Assembly: GCA_017484205.1 (NCBI GenBank)
Contig: JAFUTO010000016.1
Span: 1-54,107 of the forward strand
Origin: Bacilli bacterium
GTDB taxonomy: Bacteria; Bacillota_I; Bacilli_A; RF39; UBA660
Length of the DNA: 54,107 bases
Direction of reading: 5' to 3'
Shown: positions 5,527 to 11,404 of the stretch, piece by piece
How the letters are laid out: the number at the start of each line of letters is the position of its first letter
Position numbering within the stretch: the first letter of the stretch is position 1
Program-made: the position numbers and the translations under genes
The notes under the pieces: model-generated
Seen by the model: the letters and a program-made list of their open reading frames with translations, nothing else
The model's database searches: none
What the model was told of the DNA's origin: nothing

Positions 5527-6585
5527 ATGTTTGGATTAGAAATGGATCAATTAGCAAAAATAAAAGTAATTGGAGTTGGTGGTGGCGGTAATAATGCCGT
5601 TAATAGAATGATTGAATCAGGTGTAAAAGGTGTAGACTTTATAGTTGCCAATACAGATTTACAAGTTTTAAATAATTCTAAAGCTCCTGTAAAAATACAA
5701 ATTGGTACAGATTTAACTAATGGACTAGGTGCTGGTGCTAACCCACAAATTGGTAAAGAAGCTGCATTAGAATCAAAAGATGAAATACAAGCTGCTTTAG
5801 AAGGTGCAGATATGGTATTCATCACATGTGGTATGGGTGGTGGAACTGGTACAGGTGCTGCTCCAGTTATAGCAGAAATCGCACAAAGTATTGGGGCTTT
5901 AACTGTTGGTATTGTAACTAAACCATTCTCATTTGAAGGAAAAAGAAGAATGCAACAAGCATTTGATGGTATTGCTGAATTAAGAGGTCATGTAGATACT
6001 TTAATCGTTATACCTAATGATAGATTAAGAGAATTAATTGATAAGTCAACACCATTATTAGAATCATTCAAAGAAGTAGATAATGTATTAAGAAGAGGTG
6101 TTCAATCTATATCTGATTTAATTGCTGTAGCAGGTTTAATCAACTTGGATTTTGCAGATGTTAAAACTGTTATGGAAAAAAGAGGAGATGCCTTAATTGG
6201 TATAGGTATGGGTACAGGTGAAGGTAGAGCTACTGAAGCTGCTCGTCAAGCTGTATCTAGTCCGTTATTAGAAACATCAATTGATGGAGCTACTGATGCC
6301 ATTATTAATGTTACAGGTGGTAATAATTTAACATTATTTGAAGTTGAAGAAGCTGTTGAAGTTATTAGATCAAGTGCTAATACAGATATTAATACTATCT
6401 TCGGTGCTGTTATTAATGAAAATTTAAATGACGAGTTAATTGTTACTGTTATTGCAACAGGATTCAATGATAAGAAAACTGAATCTACAATTGAAGATGA
6501 AGACGAATTTACTATTCCTGATGATGATGACGATGATGATGGAGATACAATTATTCCTAGCATTTTAAAAAGAAGAGGATTTTAA
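5527..6585 (+). CDS. ftsZ: FtsZ, tubulin-like division GTPase
   Basis: GTP-driven polymer that forms the Z-ring. The 352-aa protein has the N-terminal nucleotide loop GGGGNNAVN (18-26), the tubulin signature [10 protein letters not shown] (104-113) and the T7 synergy loop [11 protein letters not shown] that completes the GTPase site of the next subunit. The body is compact. The variable linker is short and extremely acidic, with a run of seven Asp, and leads to the conserved C-terminal peptide ([12 protein letters not shown]) that binds FtsA/SepF-type partners. The ATG at 5527 follows a strong GAGGAGG SD; Met6 would be a poorer choice. Co-transcribed with ftsA and closed by a good terminator. 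Confidence 0.98.
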
Positions 6586-6681: not shown

Positions 6682-7464
6682 ATGACGATATATTTAGACC
6701 TAGTATTTTTTTTAAATTTGTTTTTTGATTTTATACTACTTTTAAGTGTATCTTTGTTACTTAAAAGAAATATAAAACTATATAATGTGCTTTTTGGTTC
6801 ATTAATAGGTAGTTTATCTATATTTCTATTATTTATCGACTTGAATAATATAGAGTTATTCATCTTTAAATTTATTATTAGTATATTAATGACTGTAACA
6901 ACATTTGGATATAAAGATATTTTATATACGATTAAAAATATAATATATTTATATTTCGTAAGTATATTTTTAGGAGGATTTTTATATTTAATTAATGATA
7001 GTTTTGATTATCATAATGGATTAGTCTTTTATAATAATGGATTATCAATAAATATAATAATTATTCTTGTATTGACACCAATACTTGTCTATGTTTATTT
7101 AAAAGGTTTCAAACATATTAAAAATAATTATCATAATTATTACAATATATCATTATATATAAAGGATAAAATTATAAATGTAACTTCATATTTAGATACA
7201 GGTAATAAATTAGAATCACCTTACACTCATACACCAGTAATATTATTACATAATAAAGATCCAATATTTAATAATTTAAAATATACTTTAATTCCATATA
7301 ATACAGTTTCTAGTAATGGTCTTATAAAATGTTATAAAGTAGATAAAATACATATAGAAGGGGTGGGTGATAGATATAAAGTAATAGTAGGTATTATGGA
7401 AAATGAGATAAATATAGATGGTGTAGATTGTATATTAAATACTAAATTATTGGAGGGAAAATGA
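6682..7464 (+). CDS. spoIIGA: SpoIIGA, membrane aspartic protease that activates pro-SigE
   Basis: Sporulation-specific protease that cleaves the pro-sequence of SigE at the septum after a SpoIIR signal. The 260-aa protein has about five hydrophobic segments in its first 145 residues and then a soluble domain with the aspartic-protease motif SYLDTGNKLESP (Asp172-Thr-Gly). The start at 6682 follows GGTGAT and gives the usual MTIYLDLVFFLN beginning; the upstream in-frame Met lies in the promoter region. TATAAT at 6661-6666 ends 15 nt before the ATG. The stop overlaps the sigE start by 4 nt (ATGA), which signals translational coupling. It is somewhat shorter than the Bacillus protein (about 300 aa). 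Confidence 0.9.
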   Translation: MTIYLDLVFFLNLFFDFILLLSVSLLLKRNIKLYNVLFGSLIGSLSIFLLFIDLNNIELFIFKFIISILMTVTTFGYKDILYTIKNIIYLYFVSIFLGGFLYLINDSFDYHNGLVFYNNGLSINIIIILVLTPILVYVYLKGFKHIKNNYHNYYNISLYIKDKIINVTSYLDTGNKLESPYTHTPVILLHNKDPIFNNLKYTLIPYNTVSSNGLIKCYKVDKIHIEGVGDRYKVIVGIMENEINIDGVDCILNTKLLEGK

Positions 7465-8141
7465 AACTATTAAAATTAATATTAAGGATTTTTGTTAAGG
7501 ATATTTTTTATGTAGGAAGTGTAGATAAACTTCCAGGACCTTTATCTAGTGAAGAAGAAGCAAAATATATTGAATTATCTTTAAATGGCGATGAAGAAGC
7601 GCGAAATAAACTTATTGAACATAATTTAAGATTAGTTGTCTTCTTAGCTAAAAAATATGATAATACAGGTGTAGATTTAGAAGATTTAGTAAGTATTGGT
7701 ACCATTGGACTTATAAAAGGAGTTAACACATATAAGAATGATAAAAACATTAAGTTAGCTACTTATGCATCTAGGTGTATTGATAATGAAATATTAATGT
7801 TTTTAAGAAAAAATAAAAAAAGAAAAGGTGAAGTATCTTTTGAAGATAGCCTATCGTTTGATGCAGAAGGGAATGAACTACACTTAGAAGATGTACTAGG
7901 TACTGAACCTGATATTGTAAGTAAAGGTATTGAAGATGAAACAGATAGAAAATTACTATATGATGAATTATCTAAGTTAAATGATAGAGATAAAGAAATA
8001 ATATGTTTAAGATATGGACTTTTAGGTAAAAAAGCAATGACTCAAAAGGATGTAGCGACATTACTTGGAATATCACAATCATATATTTCTAGAATTGAAA
8101 AAAAGGTTATTAATAGATTAAAAAATATTACTAAAATATAA
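7461..8141 (+). CDS. sigE: Pro-sigma-E, mother-cell sporulation sigma factor
   Basis: Sigma-70 family factor that directs early mother-cell transcription in sporulation. The 226-aa sequence follows Bacillus SigE along its length: region 2 (RNKLIEHNLRLVVFLAKKYD, DLVSIGTIGLIKGVNTY, IKLATYASRCIDNEILMFLR) and region 4 with its helix-turn-helix (TQKDVATLLGISQSYISRIEKK). The N-terminus is a short basic amphipathic pro-sequence ending near IFYVGSVDKLPGPLS. The cleavage site by analogy lies around residues 14-18, so the pro-region is about ten residues shorter than in B. subtilis. It overlaps spoIIGA by 4 nt. The normal partner sigG is not next to it but 28.5 kb away. Confidence 0.93.
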   Translation: MKLLKLILRIFVKDIFYVGSVDKLPGPLSSEEEAKYIELSLNGDEEARNKLIEHNLRLVVFLAKKYDNTGVDLEDLVSIGTIGLIKGVNTYKNDKNIKLATYASRCIDNEILMFLRKNKKRKGEVSFEDSLSFDAEGNELHLEDVLGTEPDIVSKGIEDETDRKLLYDELSKLNDRDKEIICLRYGLLGKKAMTQKDVATLLGISQSYISRIEKKVINRLKNITKI

Positions 8142-8187: not shown

Positions 8188-8625
8188 ATGGATCAAAATA
8201 TGGAATTTATAAATTATGTGTATGAAGTGTCATGTATGGGAGTCAGTAGTATGACAACACTACTTAATACTTTAAAAGATAAGGATAATAAAATTAAAAA
8301 AGCATGTGAGGATATAATTAAAGGACATGAACATTTTGTTAAAGAAACTAAGTCAATATTAAAGAAAAACAATGCTGAAATAAAAGAAGTAGGTATGATG
8401 GCAAAAATGGGTTCATGGATGGGAATTAAAACTGAAATGCTTAAAGATAATAGTGATTCACGTGTAGCAGATATGATTATTAGAGGACTTACTATGGGCC
8501 TTTTAGAACTAGATAAAAAAATAGAATCATTTGATGAAAATACTGATTCTAAAAATAAGAAGTTAGCAAAGGAACTTAGAAAATTTGAAAGTGATAGTAT
8601 TGAACTTTTAAAACCATATTTGTAA
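8188..8625 (+). CDS. Small all-helical protein of unknown function
   Basis: A 145-aa protein with a predicted four-helix pattern: four stretches of 20-35 residues with heptad-like hydrophobic spacing, Lys/Glu/Asp-rich surfaces, and a central Met/Gly segment (GMMAKMGSWMG). There is no signal peptide. The start at 8188 follows an exact GGAGG SD; upstream in-frame codons are rejected. It resembles the DUF2383/ferritin-like four-helix bundles in length and pattern, but I see no clear metal-binding EXXH pair, so this is only a suggestion. It lies 46 nt after sigE, and its stop codon is 2 nt before the -35 of the first antitoxin RNA. Confidence 0.7.
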   Translation: MDQNMEFINYVYEVSCMGVSSMTTLLNTLKDKDNKIKKACEDIIKGHEHFVKETKSILKKNNAEIKEVGMMAKMGSWMGIKTEMLKDNSDSRVADMIIRGLTMGLLELDKKIESFDENTDSKNKKLAKELRKFESDSIELLKPYL

Positions 8626-8627
8626 TA

Positions 8628-8656
8628 TTGACTTTAATATAAAAATATAGTATATT
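8628..8656 (+). promoter_or_regulatory. Promoter of type III TA locus 1
   Basis: TTGACT (8628-8633), an exact 17-nt spacer and TATATT (8651-8656). Bases 8624-8677 recur at 9431-9484 with a single mismatch, so promoter and leader were copied together with the second locus. Predicted start of RNA near 8663. Confidence 0.9.
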
Positions 8657-8686
8657 ATAAGTGCACAAGCGATTGTGTAATAAAGA

Positions 8687-8720
8687 TGGCGTTTCCGGCT
8701 GAAACAGGAATTTAAAAAAG
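8687..8720 (+). repeat. Divergent first antitoxin unit, related to the array of locus 2
   Basis: 34 nt that begin TGGCGTTTCCGGC, the same 13 bases as the units of locus 2, and go on with AACAGGAAT. It ends in the A-rich tail of locus 1. It keeps the pseudoknot: TGGC with GCTG (two G-U pairs) and TTCC with GGAA. Confidence 0.85.
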
Positions 8721-8860
8721 TGGTGAACCCAGCCATAAATCGGGAACTAAAAAAGTGGTGAACCCAGCCATAAATCGGGAACTAAAAAAGTGGTGAACCC
8801 AGCCATAAATCGGGAACTAAAAAAGCGGTGAACCCAGCCATAAATCGGGAACTAAAAAAG
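8721..8860 (+). repeat. Four tandem 35-nt antitoxin repeats (locus 1)
   Basis: Perfect head-to-tail repeats of 35 nt with a single substitution at 8826. There is no spacer sequence between units, which excludes a CRISPR array. Confidence 0.97.
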
Positions 8861-8863
8861 AGA

Positions 8864-8897
8864 AGTTAGATGTATAAAATTACATCTAACTTTTTTT
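8864..8897 (+). terminator. Attenuating terminator between antitoxin 1 and toxin 1
   Basis: AGTTAGATGTA (8864-8874) pairs perfectly with TACATCTAACT (8881-8891) around a 6-nt loop, followed by seven T. In ToxIN systems this terminator sets the excess of antitoxin RNA over toxin mRNA. The stem sequence is the same as at locus 2. Confidence 0.93.
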
Positions 8898-8917
8898 GTT
8901 TAGAAAGGAGGCGAAAA

Positions 8918-9418
8918 ATGTCGGATAATTTTAAATTAGTTAGAATTAATTCTGATTATTGCGATTATTTAAGAAAATATGATTATAGAGTACCATTTAA
9001 TAATAAAGATAAGAAAACGAGACCATTTGTAGGAATACTTTTTAAAATTAATGATTTTGATTATTTTGCTCCGTTATCTAGTCCTAAGGTAAAACATAGG
9101 AATATGAGATCATCGCTAGATTATATTAAATTGGATAATGGTAATTTAGAAATTGTTAATTTTAATAATATGTTACCAGTAACAAAAAATGTATACAAAA
9201 TTATTTTAATTAATTATAATGAACATAATTATAGTGTTTTATTACAAAAACAATTAGATTGGTTGAATGAAAATAAAAATGAAGTTAGAAATAAGGCAAC
9301 TAAATTATATAAATATTATAATAATAATCATTTAAATGGTAATATAATGGGTAGATGTTGCGATTTCAAATTATTAGAAGAAAAATGTGTTGAATATAAT
9401 AAAGTATTATCTTCTTAA
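8918..9418 (+). CDS. ToxN/AbiQ-family endoribonuclease toxin 1
   Basis: Toxin of a type III toxin-antitoxin/abortive-infection system: a sequence-specific endoribonuclease held inactive by the repeat RNA encoded upstream. The 166-aa protein shows the family pattern: DYCDYLRKYDYRVP near the N-terminus, RPFVGILFKIN (35-45), the active-site segment YFAPLSSPK (49-57) followed by KH, and the C-terminal RCCDFKLLEEKC (146-157). The start is ATG 8918, 5 nt after an AAAGGAGG SD; the longer frame from 8870 would begin inside the terminator hairpin and is rejected. Over the first 60 residues it matches toxin 2 at 40 positions by my count, so the pair arose by duplication. Confidence 0.93.
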   Translation: MSDNFKLVRINSDYCDYLRKYDYRVPFNNKDKKTRPFVGILFKINDFDYFAPLSSPKVKHRNMRSSLDYIKLDNGNLEIVNFNNMLPVTKNVYKIILINYNEHNYSVLLQKQLDWLNENKNEVRNKATKLYKYYNNNHLNGNIMGRCCDFKLLEEKCVEYNKVLSS

Positions 9419-9434
9419 TATCATACTTATAATA

Positions 9435-9463
9435 TTGACTTTAATATAAAAATATAGTATATT
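9435..9463 (+). promoter_or_regulatory. Promoter of type III TA locus 2
   Basis: TTGACT (9435-9440), 17-nt spacer, TATATT (9458-9463). It is a near-exact copy of the locus 1 promoter. RNA start predicted near 9470. Confidence 0.9.
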
Positions 9464-9492
9464 ATAAGTGCACAAGCAATTGTGTGTGAAAG

Positions 9493-9615
9493 CTGGCGTT
9501 TCCGGCCATAACAATAACAGGAATCTAAGAAAGCTGGCGTTTCCGGCCATAACAATAACAGGAATCTAAGAAAGCTGGCGTTTCCGGCCATAACAATAAC
9601 AGGAATCTAAGAAAG
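9493..9615 (+). repeat. Three tandem 41-nt antitoxin repeats (locus 2)
   Basis: Three identical head-to-tail 41-nt units without spacers. Confidence 0.97.
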
Positions 9616-9618
9616 TGA

Positions 9619-9649
9619 AGTTAGATGTAAATTACATCTAACTTTTTTT
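9619..9649 (+). terminator. Attenuating terminator between antitoxin 2 and toxin 2
   Basis: AGTTAGATGTA (9619-9629) pairs with TACATCTAACT (9633-9643) around a 3-nt loop, followed by a run of seven T. The stem is identical to that of locus 1; only the loop differs. Confidence 0.92.
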
Positions 9650-9667
9650 GTAGAAAGGAGGCGAATT

Positions 9668-10183
9668 ATGTCGGGGAATATGAATTTAGTTATAATAGAT
9701 ACTGAATATTGTGATTATTTAAGAAAATTTGATTGTAGAGTACCATATAACAAAGAAAATAAAGATTTTAGACCATTTGTAGGTGTATTATTTAGAATAA
9801 ATGATATTGAATACTTTGCTCCGTTATCTAGTCCAAAGCCTAAGCATTTAAAAATGAAAGAATTTATAGACTTTATTAAAATTGATGATGGTAATTTAGG
9901 GATTATAAATTTGAATAATATGATTCCAGTAACTAAAAATAATTATAAAGTTATTAATTATAAAGAGTATGATTCTAATGTCTTTCATGATATGAATTAC
10001 TATAGAATGCAACAAAAGGAATTGCTTTGGCTAAATAGAAATAAAAATATAATAATTAGTAGGGCATATAAACTATATACAAAATATATGAATAACAAAC
10101 TGCCTGAAGCTATTAGAAAAAGATGTTGTGATTTCAAATTATTAGAAGAAAAATGTGATGAATATAATAAAGTGTTAAACTAG
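9668..10183 (+). CDS. ToxN/AbiQ-family endoribonuclease toxin 2
   Basis: Second type III toxin, 171 aa, paralogous to the gene at 8918. The same landmarks are present: EYCDYLRKFDCRVP, RPFVGVLFRIN (35-45), YFAPLSSPK (49-57) and the C-terminal RCCDFKLLEEKC. It differs mainly in the central region (about 60-140), where antitoxin contacts and specificity would be expected to diverge along with the different repeat RNA. ATG 9668 has a GAAAGGAGG SD identical in context to that of toxin 1. Its TAG stop lies inside a short hairpin (10177-10198) that may end the transcript. Both toxins look intact. Confidence 0.93.
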   Translation: MSGNMNLVIIDTEYCDYLRKFDCRVPYNKENKDFRPFVGVLFRINDIEYFAPLSSPKPKHLKMKEFIDFIKIDDGNLGIINLNNMIPVTKNNYKVINYKEYDSNVFHDMNYYRMQQKELLWLNRNKNIIISRAYKLYTKYMNNKLPEAIRKRCCDFKLLEEKCDEYNKVLN

Positions 10184-10209
10184 ATATAACTCTAGTTTTA
10201 TTTTATAAT
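10177..10209 (+). terminator. Likely terminator after toxin 2
   Basis: AAACTAGA (10177-10184) pairs with TCTAGTTT (10191-10198) around TATAAC, followed by a T-rich but interrupted tail. Confidence 0.6.
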
Positions 10210-10237
10210 TTATTATATAATGAATGTAGGTGATATA

Positions 10238-11404
10238 ATGAAGAAATTAACTATACTTTGTTTACATATGGGATATGGAGGAGCTGAAAACGCAATCGCG
10301 TCTTTAGCTAATAATTTATGTAATAAATATGATATAGAAATAGTATCGGTATATAAATTATATGATAAAGAAGCATATACGCTAGATAAAAAAATAAATG
10401 TTACATATCTTATGGAAACTGATATTGCTTTAAGGACGGATACATATAAAAAATTACTTAGATCACATAAAATATTTAAACTATTTAAAGTACTACTTAG
10501 AGATTATAAGATTAATATATTTAGATTAGCTAAAGATACTATTGATAGCTATATAAATGTAAAAAATAAAAAGAGATTAATGATTAATTATATCAAAAAT
10601 ATGAATACGGATATTGTATTATCAACTAGATTAGAATATAACTATTATTTAAGTGAGTATCAGCCAAAGGCTTATAAGGTGGCTTGGGAACATAATCATG
10701 GAGATATTAAATATATAAGAGAAGTCATAAAAAGTTGCAATGGTGTAGATAGATTAGTAGTTGTATCTAAAGGATTATATGATATTTATACTAGTGAAAC
10801 TAATGATTTAAAAATATCTTATATACCTAATGTATTAGATGAATTGCCTGATAAAAAATCTAAATTAGATAATAAAAGTCTTGTATCAGTTGGTAGACTT
10901 GTAACAGTTAAAGGCTATAATGATATGATTGATGTAATGAAAATAATTAATGAAAAAGATCCATCAATTACATTAGAAATAATAGGTGATGGAGATTTAA
11001 AATATGATTTAAAAAACAAAGTGAAAGATTTAAAACTTGATAAAAATATTAAATTAGTCGGTTTAAAAGATAAGAAATATATTAATGATAAATTAGCAAA
11101 ATCATCACTATTTATATCAACATCCCATTCTGAGTCGTTTGGATTAGCGGTTATAGAAGCTATGTCAGCTGGTGTACCTGTTATTGCCTTTGATTCAGCA
11201 GAAGGATTAACTGAACTTATCGATAATAAAAATGGTATATTAATTCAAAATAGAAATATAGAAGAAATGGCAAATGAAATAATAGAATTATTAGATGATA
11301 AAGTAAGAATAAAAGAAATGGGTAAGAATGCATATAATACATCATTAAATTATACAAAAGATAAAGTATATGATAAATGGTTAAAGGTTATGGAGGATAA
11401 ATGA
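10238..11404 (+). CDS. Glycosyltransferase, GT4 family
   Basis: Retaining nucleotide-sugar glycosyltransferase of GT-B fold, probably working on a surface glycan. The 388-aa protein begins KKLTILCLHMGYGGAENAI, an acceptor-side Rossmann start of GT4 type. It has VSVGRLVTVKGYNDMIDVMK (C-domain start, about 216-235), IIGDGDLKYDL and the donor-binding ESFGLAVIEAMSAGVPVIAF segment with its E-x7-E pattern. The start is ATG 10238 after AGGTGAT; TATAAT (10216-10221) ends 16 nt before it. It stands alone between the TA loci and the ATPase gene, so sugar and acceptor cannot be inferred. Confidence 0.88.
   Translation: MKKLTILCLHMGYGGAENAIASLANNLCNKYDIEIVSVYKLYDKEAYTLDKKINVTYLMETDIALRTDTYKKLLRSHKIFKLFKVLLRDYKINIFRLAKDTIDSYINVKNKKRLMINYIKNMNTDIVLSTRLEYNYYLSEYQPKAYKVAWEHNHGDIKYIREVIKSCNGVDRLVVVSKGLYDIYTSETNDLKISYIPNVLDELPDKKSKLDNKSLVSVGRLVTVKGYNDMIDVMKIINEKDPSITLEIIGDGDLKYDLKNKVKDLKLDKNIKLVGLKDKKYINDKLAKSSLFISTSHSESFGLAVIEAMSAGVPVIAFDSAEGLTELIDNKNGILIQNRNIEEMANEIIELLDDKVRIKEMGKNAYNTSLNYTKDKVYDKWLKVMEDK

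What the first reader, a model, noticed from the sequence alone, without database searches (positions are those of the whole stretch)
8624..10209. Two tandem, complete type III toxin-antitoxin loci with different repeat RNAs
Seen: two head-to-tail units, each with the same promoter (54 nt with one mismatch), a repeat array (4 x 35 nt and 3 x 41 nt), the same terminator stem, the same SD and a ToxN/AbiQ-like gene (40 of the first 60 residues identical by my count). Known: ToxIN/AbiQ loci have exactly this order and give phage abortive infection. Inference: a recent whole-locus duplication in which toxin core and promoter stayed alike while the RNA repeats, and presumably toxin specificity, diverged. 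A side-by-side pair is a natural test of how cognate recognition evolves.
Basis: partly seen in the sequence, partly recalled or inferred. Interest (0 to 1): 0.85.

Follow-up and report, generated by a model that had tools for sequence, protein, structure and literature searches.

The report
Paired RNA-neutralised toxins, one hybrid antitoxin
Two neighbouring copies of a known bacterial self-poisoning module, in which an RNA made of repeats restrains an RNA-cutting protein, have different repeats, and one repeat array starts with a unit of the other's type, so the pair may show how such RNA locks change.

Summary
Two head-to-tail ToxIN (type III toxin-antitoxin, AbiQ-like) loci lie at 8624-10183. 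Both proteins match ToxN_toxin (E 3.5e-47, 4.7e-48). The promoter/leader stretches agree in 54 of 55 bases, the toxins in 59-60% of residues.

It is B-like (UUCC:GGAA second stem), while A1-A4 have CCC:GGG stems like units of other genera. Array A looks like a hybrid.

"Recent duplication" fits poorly: in three other tandem pairs (at most two independent) the toxins are 82-85% identical and the promoters 39-43 of 50; here the promoters are closer and the toxins further apart. A and B can still be sisters. I favour an older duplication, a change of array type in A, and promoters kept alike by copying. A related genus shows such a swap in place, breaking after the first repeat.

Tandem pairs recur (five genomes seen), array type follows the toxin tree, and many leaders carry a GNRA hairpin. 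The modules are a known kind; expression, toxicity and cross-neutralisation are untested.

The parts
8628..8656 (+). Promoter A: TTGACT - 17 nt - TATATT
   Evidence: scan not above chance as a whole; stretch 54 of 55 bases as in B
8662..8679 (+). 5' leader hairpin A with GCGA (GNRA) loop
   Evidence: fold -6.7 kcal/mol, z -3.2; GNRA leader hairpins in 39 of 103 loci against 1.1 in shuffles
8679..8713 (+). Unit A0: 35 nt, UUCC:GGAA second stem, B-like, before array A
   Evidence: same register (family D2); best matches are a unit of L130, L004 unit 2 and B1
8714..8853 (+). Antitoxin array A: units A1-A4, 4 x 35 nt, CCC:GGG second stem
   Evidence: nearest unit outside the window in L081, one base shorter than A4
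8858..8897 (+). Terminator between array A and toxin A
   Evidence: fold -19.7 kcal/mol, z -8.6
8918..9418 (+). Toxin A, ToxN/AbiQ family, 166 aa
   Evidence: PF13958 E 3.5e-47, PADLOC AbiQ, PDB 4ato E 3.6e-28
9435..9463 (+). Promoter B
   Evidence: scan not above chance as a whole
9470..9485 (+). 5' leader hairpin B with GCAA (GNRA) loop
   Evidence: fold -5.7 kcal/mol, z only -1.2 on its own
9488..9610 (+). Antitoxin array B: 3 x 41 nt, UUCC:GGAA second stem, linker UAAGAAAG
9617..9645 (+). Terminator between array B and toxin B
9668..10183 (+). Toxin B, ToxN/AbiQ family, 171 aa; E118 where 111 of 119 aligned toxins have Gln
   Evidence: PF13958 E 4.7e-48, PDB 4ato E 1.6e-26, residue count
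10177..10198 (+). Terminator-like stem overlapping the stop codon of toxin B
   Evidence: fold -6.8 kcal/mol, z -2.6; sequence

Best explanation
Two complete ToxIN modules stand in tandem. In each, a promoter makes an RNA of pseudoknot repeats; a leaky terminator lets some transcripts run into the ToxN gene; ToxN, an endoribonuclease, cuts the precursor at the A-rich linkers and is held inactive by the resulting units; phage attack or another stress frees it (these steps are taken from known ToxIN and inferred here). The two modules read different RNA units and are probably mostly insulated from each other (inferred). Locus A probably began as a UUCC-type locus like B, and most of its array was replaced by CCC-type units, leaving A0 as a relic, while promoter and leader stayed nearly identical by copying between the two. 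Confidence: about 0.95 that these are two ToxIN modules, 0.75 that array A is a true hybrid of two unit types, 0.45 for this history (0.5 before my recheck of the controls).
For: Family matches. Positions given as catalytic in E. coli ToxN (Lys33, Thr52, Ser53, Lys55; passages of PMC8860590), carried over by me through the alignments, are Arg35, Ser54, Ser55, Lys57 in both A and B; that paper reports Arg at 33 in some E. coli clusters. Pseudoknot: on 81 units (78 found by linker spacing), 84.1% of cells pair against 24.7-49.4% when slid; covariation score 0.385 against 0.188 shuffled, 0 of 500. Array type tracks the toxin tree: 8 changes against 46.2 shuffled, 97 typed loci. A0 is nearest to UUCC-type units, A1 and A4 to CCC-type units. 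Promoter/toxin mismatch. In-place swap in another genus with a break after the first unit. Glu for Gln at a position that holds RNA in E. coli ToxN, together with a changed linker in B.
Against: Nothing is expressed or tested. The quick tree is weak where it matters: a tree with A and B held together was 53 log-units better than the free search had found, so counts made on the free tree are rough. A residue profile calls toxin A CCC-like (+35.6) but toxin B undecided (-1.5) and calls L004, which has UUCC-type units, CCC-like (+14.7); its accuracy is 0.86. Arrays with both U and C units occur in 4 other loci by my typing (L037, L054, L089, L114), so A0 could be ordinary turnover. By eye A0 and B1 differ at 6 aligned bases plus 6 missing ones, so A0 is no recent copy of B1. 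Two of the eight pseudoknot pairs fail in 36 of 81 units each, and the number of pairs with changes on both sides (4) was reached by 71 of 500 shuffles. At Trp57 and Asn79, whose mutation abolished toxicity in E. coli, both toxins have Lys and Gly, as nearly all of the family does. Selection could keep the promoters alike. Repeat numbers may be collapsed in this draft assembly. The Gln/linker link is 94 of 110 against 0 of 7 (p 5e-6, relatedness ignored), but only 1 independent pair on supported branches.
Confidence: 0.7

Rival explanations
1. Plain tandem duplication, then ordinary drift: the arrays diverged unit by unit with compensatory changes, A0 is simply an old unit that was not amplified, and the promoters are alike through selection.
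For: A and B as sister toxins are not rejected, p 0.923. CCC and UCC units with matching partner strands stand side by side in L037 and L114.
Against: Other tandem pairs keep less of the promoter than of the toxin or about as much (at most two independent cases plus G273). A1-A4 match units of other genera almost letter for letter.
Confidence: 0.32
2. Two independently acquired loci that share a genus-type promoter, leader and terminator because these were copied from one to the other.
For: G273 carries a tandem pair of distant toxins (52%) with different terminators. In the free quick tree toxin B pairs with the same-genus toxin L004 (support 91), not with A; toxin A scores CCC-like.
Against: The tree with A and B together was better than that free tree. 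Codon agreement A-B, 72 of 95, is matched by 5 of 117 other pairs with A and 0 of 117 with B.
Confidence: 0.2
3. Remnants: one or both modules are decaying and no longer act.
For: Broken relatives exist nearby: the own genome has a 69-aa remnant (L003) and G001 a broken copy (L005/L006).
Against: Both frames, the catalytic positions, promoters, terminators and repeats look intact.
Confidence: 0.08

Closest known systems
ToxIN of Bacillus thuringiensis (PDB 4ATO; organism recalled)
   Same: Closest solved relative of both toxins (E 3.6e-28 and 1.6e-26); same Arg and Asn-Asn stretches in the alignment; A-rich cleavage site as quoted in PMC8860590
   Different: Its array was not compared; toxin B has Glu where 4ATO has Gln, and a UAAGAAAG linker
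AbiQ (PDB 4GLK; Lactococcus, recalled)
   Same: Same family (PADLOC AbiQ E 1.5e-38 and 2.2e-36); order promoter-array-terminator-toxin (recalled)
   Different: The four listed Lactococcus plasmid records with a relative hold one place each; here two loci stand side by side
ToxIN of E. coli and Pectobacterium (PDB 7D8O, 2XD0; organisms recalled)
   Same: Array, terminator and toxin order, catalytic positions (PMC8860590, passages)
   Different: Two loci side by side and a hybrid array here; several RNA-contact positions differ
CptIN
   Same: Works alike; all six non-cognate RNA-toxin combinations failed to neutralise at 35-44% toxin identity (PMC4627078, passages)
   Different: Another toxin family; Pfam listed only the ToxN model for the window proteins

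Membership tests
ToxIN (type III toxin-antitoxin, ToxN/AbiQ family) | Toxin homologous to ToxN/AbiQ | tested here: met
   PF13958 161 and 163.8 bits, cut-off 25; PADLOC AbiQ; PDB ToxN and AbiQ
ToxIN (type III toxin-antitoxin, ToxN/AbiQ family) | Tandem repeat array upstream of the toxin, below a promoter | tested here: met
   arrays; promoter by consensus and position only, the scan is not above chance
ToxIN (type III toxin-antitoxin, ToxN/AbiQ family) | Terminator hairpin between array and toxin | tested here: met
   folds of both; + strand scan hit for B only
ToxIN (type III toxin-antitoxin, ToxN/AbiQ family) | Repeats fold as H-type pseudoknots | tested here: met
   Covariation in 81 related units including A0, A1 and B1; no experiment
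ToxIN (type III toxin-antitoxin, ToxN/AbiQ family) | Catalytic residues | tested here: met
   Arg35, Ser54, Ser55, Lys57 in both; but Lys and Gly at the Trp57 and Asn79 positions in both, and Gln112 in A against Glu118 in B at the Gln117 position
ToxIN (type III toxin-antitoxin, ToxN/AbiQ family) | Toxin is a toxic endoribonuclease neutralised by its RNA | not testable with these tools
   needs expression
ToxIN (type III toxin-antitoxin, ToxN/AbiQ family) | Triangular heterohexamer of three proteins and three RNAs | not testable with these tools
   needs structure or mass measurement
Phage abortive infection system | Blocks phage by suicide of the infected cell | not testable with these tools
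   needs phage tests; known for some ToxIN (PMC5086642, passages)

The most novel reading that the evidence does not exclude
Tandem type III loci exchange array-plus-toxin cassettes behind a fixed promoter, leader and first repeat, and the first repeat that stays behind makes a bilingual antitoxin RNA: A0 in transcript A neutralises toxin B while A1-A4 neutralise toxin A, which bridges the moment at which a toxin changes its RNA partner.
Probability: 0.2. Interest if true: 0.75.

Novelty: new member of a known kind. Interest (0 to 1): 0.5.

Why it matters
Type III antitoxin RNAs were found to be specific for their own toxin (PMC5086642, PMC4627078, passages), so it is unclear how a pair can change partner without killing its host. 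A side-by-side pair whose array still carries a unit of the other type, together with 119 aligned toxins and the arrays before most of them, makes that question testable in a small kill-and-rescue experiment. It also names a candidate residue (Gln to Glu at the RNA-holding site) and a candidate recombination point (after the first repeat).

Tried and rejected
Simple mosaic toxin A (N-terminus from B, rest from a CCC-type toxin): windowed identity showed no clean switch. Codon identity as a sign of recent conversion: A-B agrees in 72 of 95 codons overall and 16 of 18 at the 3' end, but 5 of 117 other toxins do as well or better with A in each case, and 10 of 117 with B at the 3' end. Rfam: 0 matches over the gathering score in the window. 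Empty-site test in the same-genus genome G001: the sigma-factor homologue there is split and only 40-47% identical, and the glycosyltransferase homologue has other genes upstream, so no empty site could be read. Residue-to-RNA-type association is confounded by relatedness and is not used as proof. No structure was predicted.

Papers: the 2012 classification paper (gks231) is not held. In the listings of searches no title or abstract start pointed to tandem ToxIN loci, hybrid ToxI arrays or a GNRA leader; in the 2016 review 'duplicat' occurs 0 times. Searches were poor, because 'toxi' and 'ToxIN' match 'toxin'; one search was about the organisms. This is no proof that none exists. Read: section 17 of PMC5086642 and passages of PMC5086642, PMC8860590 and PMC4627078; no paper in full.

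Full report
WHAT IS THERE. The window is the whole contig C16 of a 1.27-Mb draft genome (34 contigs, completeness 92.5). The four named relatives found with toxin B are MAGs called uncultured Bacilli bacterium, isolates 'Lapin-...' (perhaps rabbit gut). Around the finding lie an FtsZ-like gene (5527-6585; recognised by eye), a sigma factor with Sigma70 regions 2 and 4 (7461-8141), a small protein without a Pfam match (8188-8625) and, downstream, a glycosyltransferase (10220-11404). Between them are two units in the same order: promoter TTGACT-17-TATATT, leader, repeats, terminator, SD, ToxN gene. The promoter scan as a whole is not above chance (22 sites against 19.0 in shuffles); the promoters rest on place and repetition.

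THE PROTEINS. Both match Pfam ToxN_toxin (E 3.5e-47 and 4.7e-48), PADLOC AbiQ and the solved ToxN and AbiQ chains, best 4ATO. They share 102 of 172 positions (59%), 40 of the first 60. The positions called catalytic in E. coli ToxN (PMC8860590, passages) are kept in both or changed alike (Arg for Lys33, Ser for Thr52). At Trp57 and Asn79, whose mutation abolished toxicity there, both have Lys and Gly, as 117 and 112 of 119 family toxins do. The 117 position, whose change to Ala also abolished toxicity, is Gln112 in A and Glu118 in B; among 119 toxins (A and B included) it is Gln in 111, Glu in 6, Asp in 2. Arrays with A-run linkers (two A5G runs at repeat spacing) go with 94 of 110 Gln toxins and 0 of 7 Glu/Asp toxins (Fisher p 5e-6). 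Relatedness weakens this: 6 changes of the residue on the tree, one independent pair on supported branches.

THE RNAs. Array A is 4 x 35 nt (8714-8853), array B 3 x 41 nt (9488-9610). One further 35-nt unit, A0, precedes array A (8679-8713). Units can be drawn as H-type pseudoknots. I tested this on 81 units, 78 of them found by linker spacing: 84.1% of cells pair, sliding the partner gives at most 49.4%, and the covariation score 0.385 was reached by none of 500 shuffles; but the two outer pairs fail in 36 of 81 units each, and 71 of 500 shuffles reach the number of pairs with changes on both sides. Type follows the toxin tree: 8 changes for 97 typed loci, against 46.2 in shuffles, on a tree that a later test showed not to be the best. 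Five of 119 arrays, window A among them, hold both U and C units by this typing.

THE HYBRID. A0 is of U type. Its best matches among 385 parsed stretches (some false), two units of L004 and the window's own other units are a unit of L130, unit 2 of the same-genus locus L004, and B1; A1 and A4 match C-type units of other genera, the nearest one base shorter than A4. L004 shares the leader stem CACAA/UUGUG and a GTTAGATGT terminator arm. So array A seems to have a genus-type front and terminator around foreign-looking units; the genus is known here from two genomes only.

RECENT DUPLICATION? In three tandem pairs of genus g55 (those of G476 and G515 share ancestry on the tree) the toxins are 82-85% identical and the best 50-base promoter match is 39-43; in G273 the toxins are 52% identical and the match is 30 of 50. 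The window pair has 60% and 54 of 55. One recent copying of the whole locus does not give this. Toxins A and B may still be sisters: holding them together gave a better tree than the free quick search, p-AU 0.923. I conclude that promoter and leader were copied or kept alike more recently than array and toxin parted. A residue profile for U or C type puts A with C (+35.6), leaves B undecided (-1.5) and misplaces L004 (+14.7), so it decides little.

A SWAP SEEN IN PLACE. In genus g55 three genomes share one site (neighbours seen for two, alignment for all three). G458 and G476 carry an orphan array with terminator, then promoter, three D units, terminator, D-type toxin. Against G458, G055 is 95.6% identical over L154 1-1671 and 96.8% over 1650-1870, which ends with the first D unit; then come three units of another type, their terminator and a different toxin (44% identical); identity returns (94.7%) from 2499, in the last 25 codons of the toxin gene. 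The new array and terminator (1864-2013) are 95.4% identical to the orphan array of G458 at that site. This is the geometry of window array A: own front, own first unit, other rest. It supports, but does not prove, a like event here; in the window the terminator was kept, and all these are draft genomes.

HOW COMMON. Tandem pairs (two toxins less than 1 kb apart, same strand), counted by eye in the match lists: 2 genomes (386 searched) and 5 (385 searched, overlapping; list cut short), the window's included: G000, G273, G476, G500, G515. Genomes with a toxin match at all: 24 of 145, 80 of 386, 99 of 385. In plasmids toxin B finds 137 places in 135 records, in phages toxin A finds 2 in 2.

LEADER HAIRPIN. 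Before the first unit, 39 of 103 loci have a hairpin of at least 5 Watson-Crick pairs with a GNRA loop; shuffles give 1.1 (maximum 4 in 200 rounds), segments further upstream 0 of 107. Of 37 with a TAnnnT box above it, 26 begin 4-7 bases after the box, near the expected RNA start. A 5' hairpin could shield the antitoxin precursor; that is inference.

VERDICT. Two ToxIN modules of a known kind, confirmed. What my searches did not show in print are the hybrid array, the mismatch between promoter and toxin, the in-place swap in a related genus and the leader hairpin; the main 2012 survey could not be read. Non-cognate CptI RNAs failed to rescue at 35-44% toxin identity (PMC4627078); what happens at 60% is not known to me. 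Functional claims remain untested.

Noticed in passing
Leaders of the ToxIN loci; window 8662-8679 and 9470-9485: 5' GNRA-tetraloop hairpin before the antitoxin repeats: 39 of 103 loci against 1.1 in shuffles.
   Followed up: partly
L155 2086-2220, L156 2071-2216: Orphan antitoxin array with its own terminator and no toxin, directly upstream of a complete ToxIN locus of another type.
   Followed up: partly
L004 1200-1310 and 2020-2121: About 100 bp are repeated directly on both sides of the same-genus ToxIN locus, as if it had been inserted with a copy of its target (seen by eye).
   Followed up: no
L004 1489-2007: This same-genus toxin has Phe at the Thr52 position, the only one of 119 with Phe, and may be inactive.
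   Followed up: no
G001:C17:148043-148405 and 163357-163692 (L160, L159): A sigma factor gene seems split into two halves 15 kb apart on one strand, like the skin element in sigK of Bacillus (recalled).
   Followed up: no
L003 (G000:C19:1654-1809): Remnant of a third ToxN gene in the window's own genome, with one C-type repeat-like unit upstream.
   Followed up: partly
L118, L130, L133: Arrays in which two unit types alternate, both able to form the pseudoknot.
   Followed up: no
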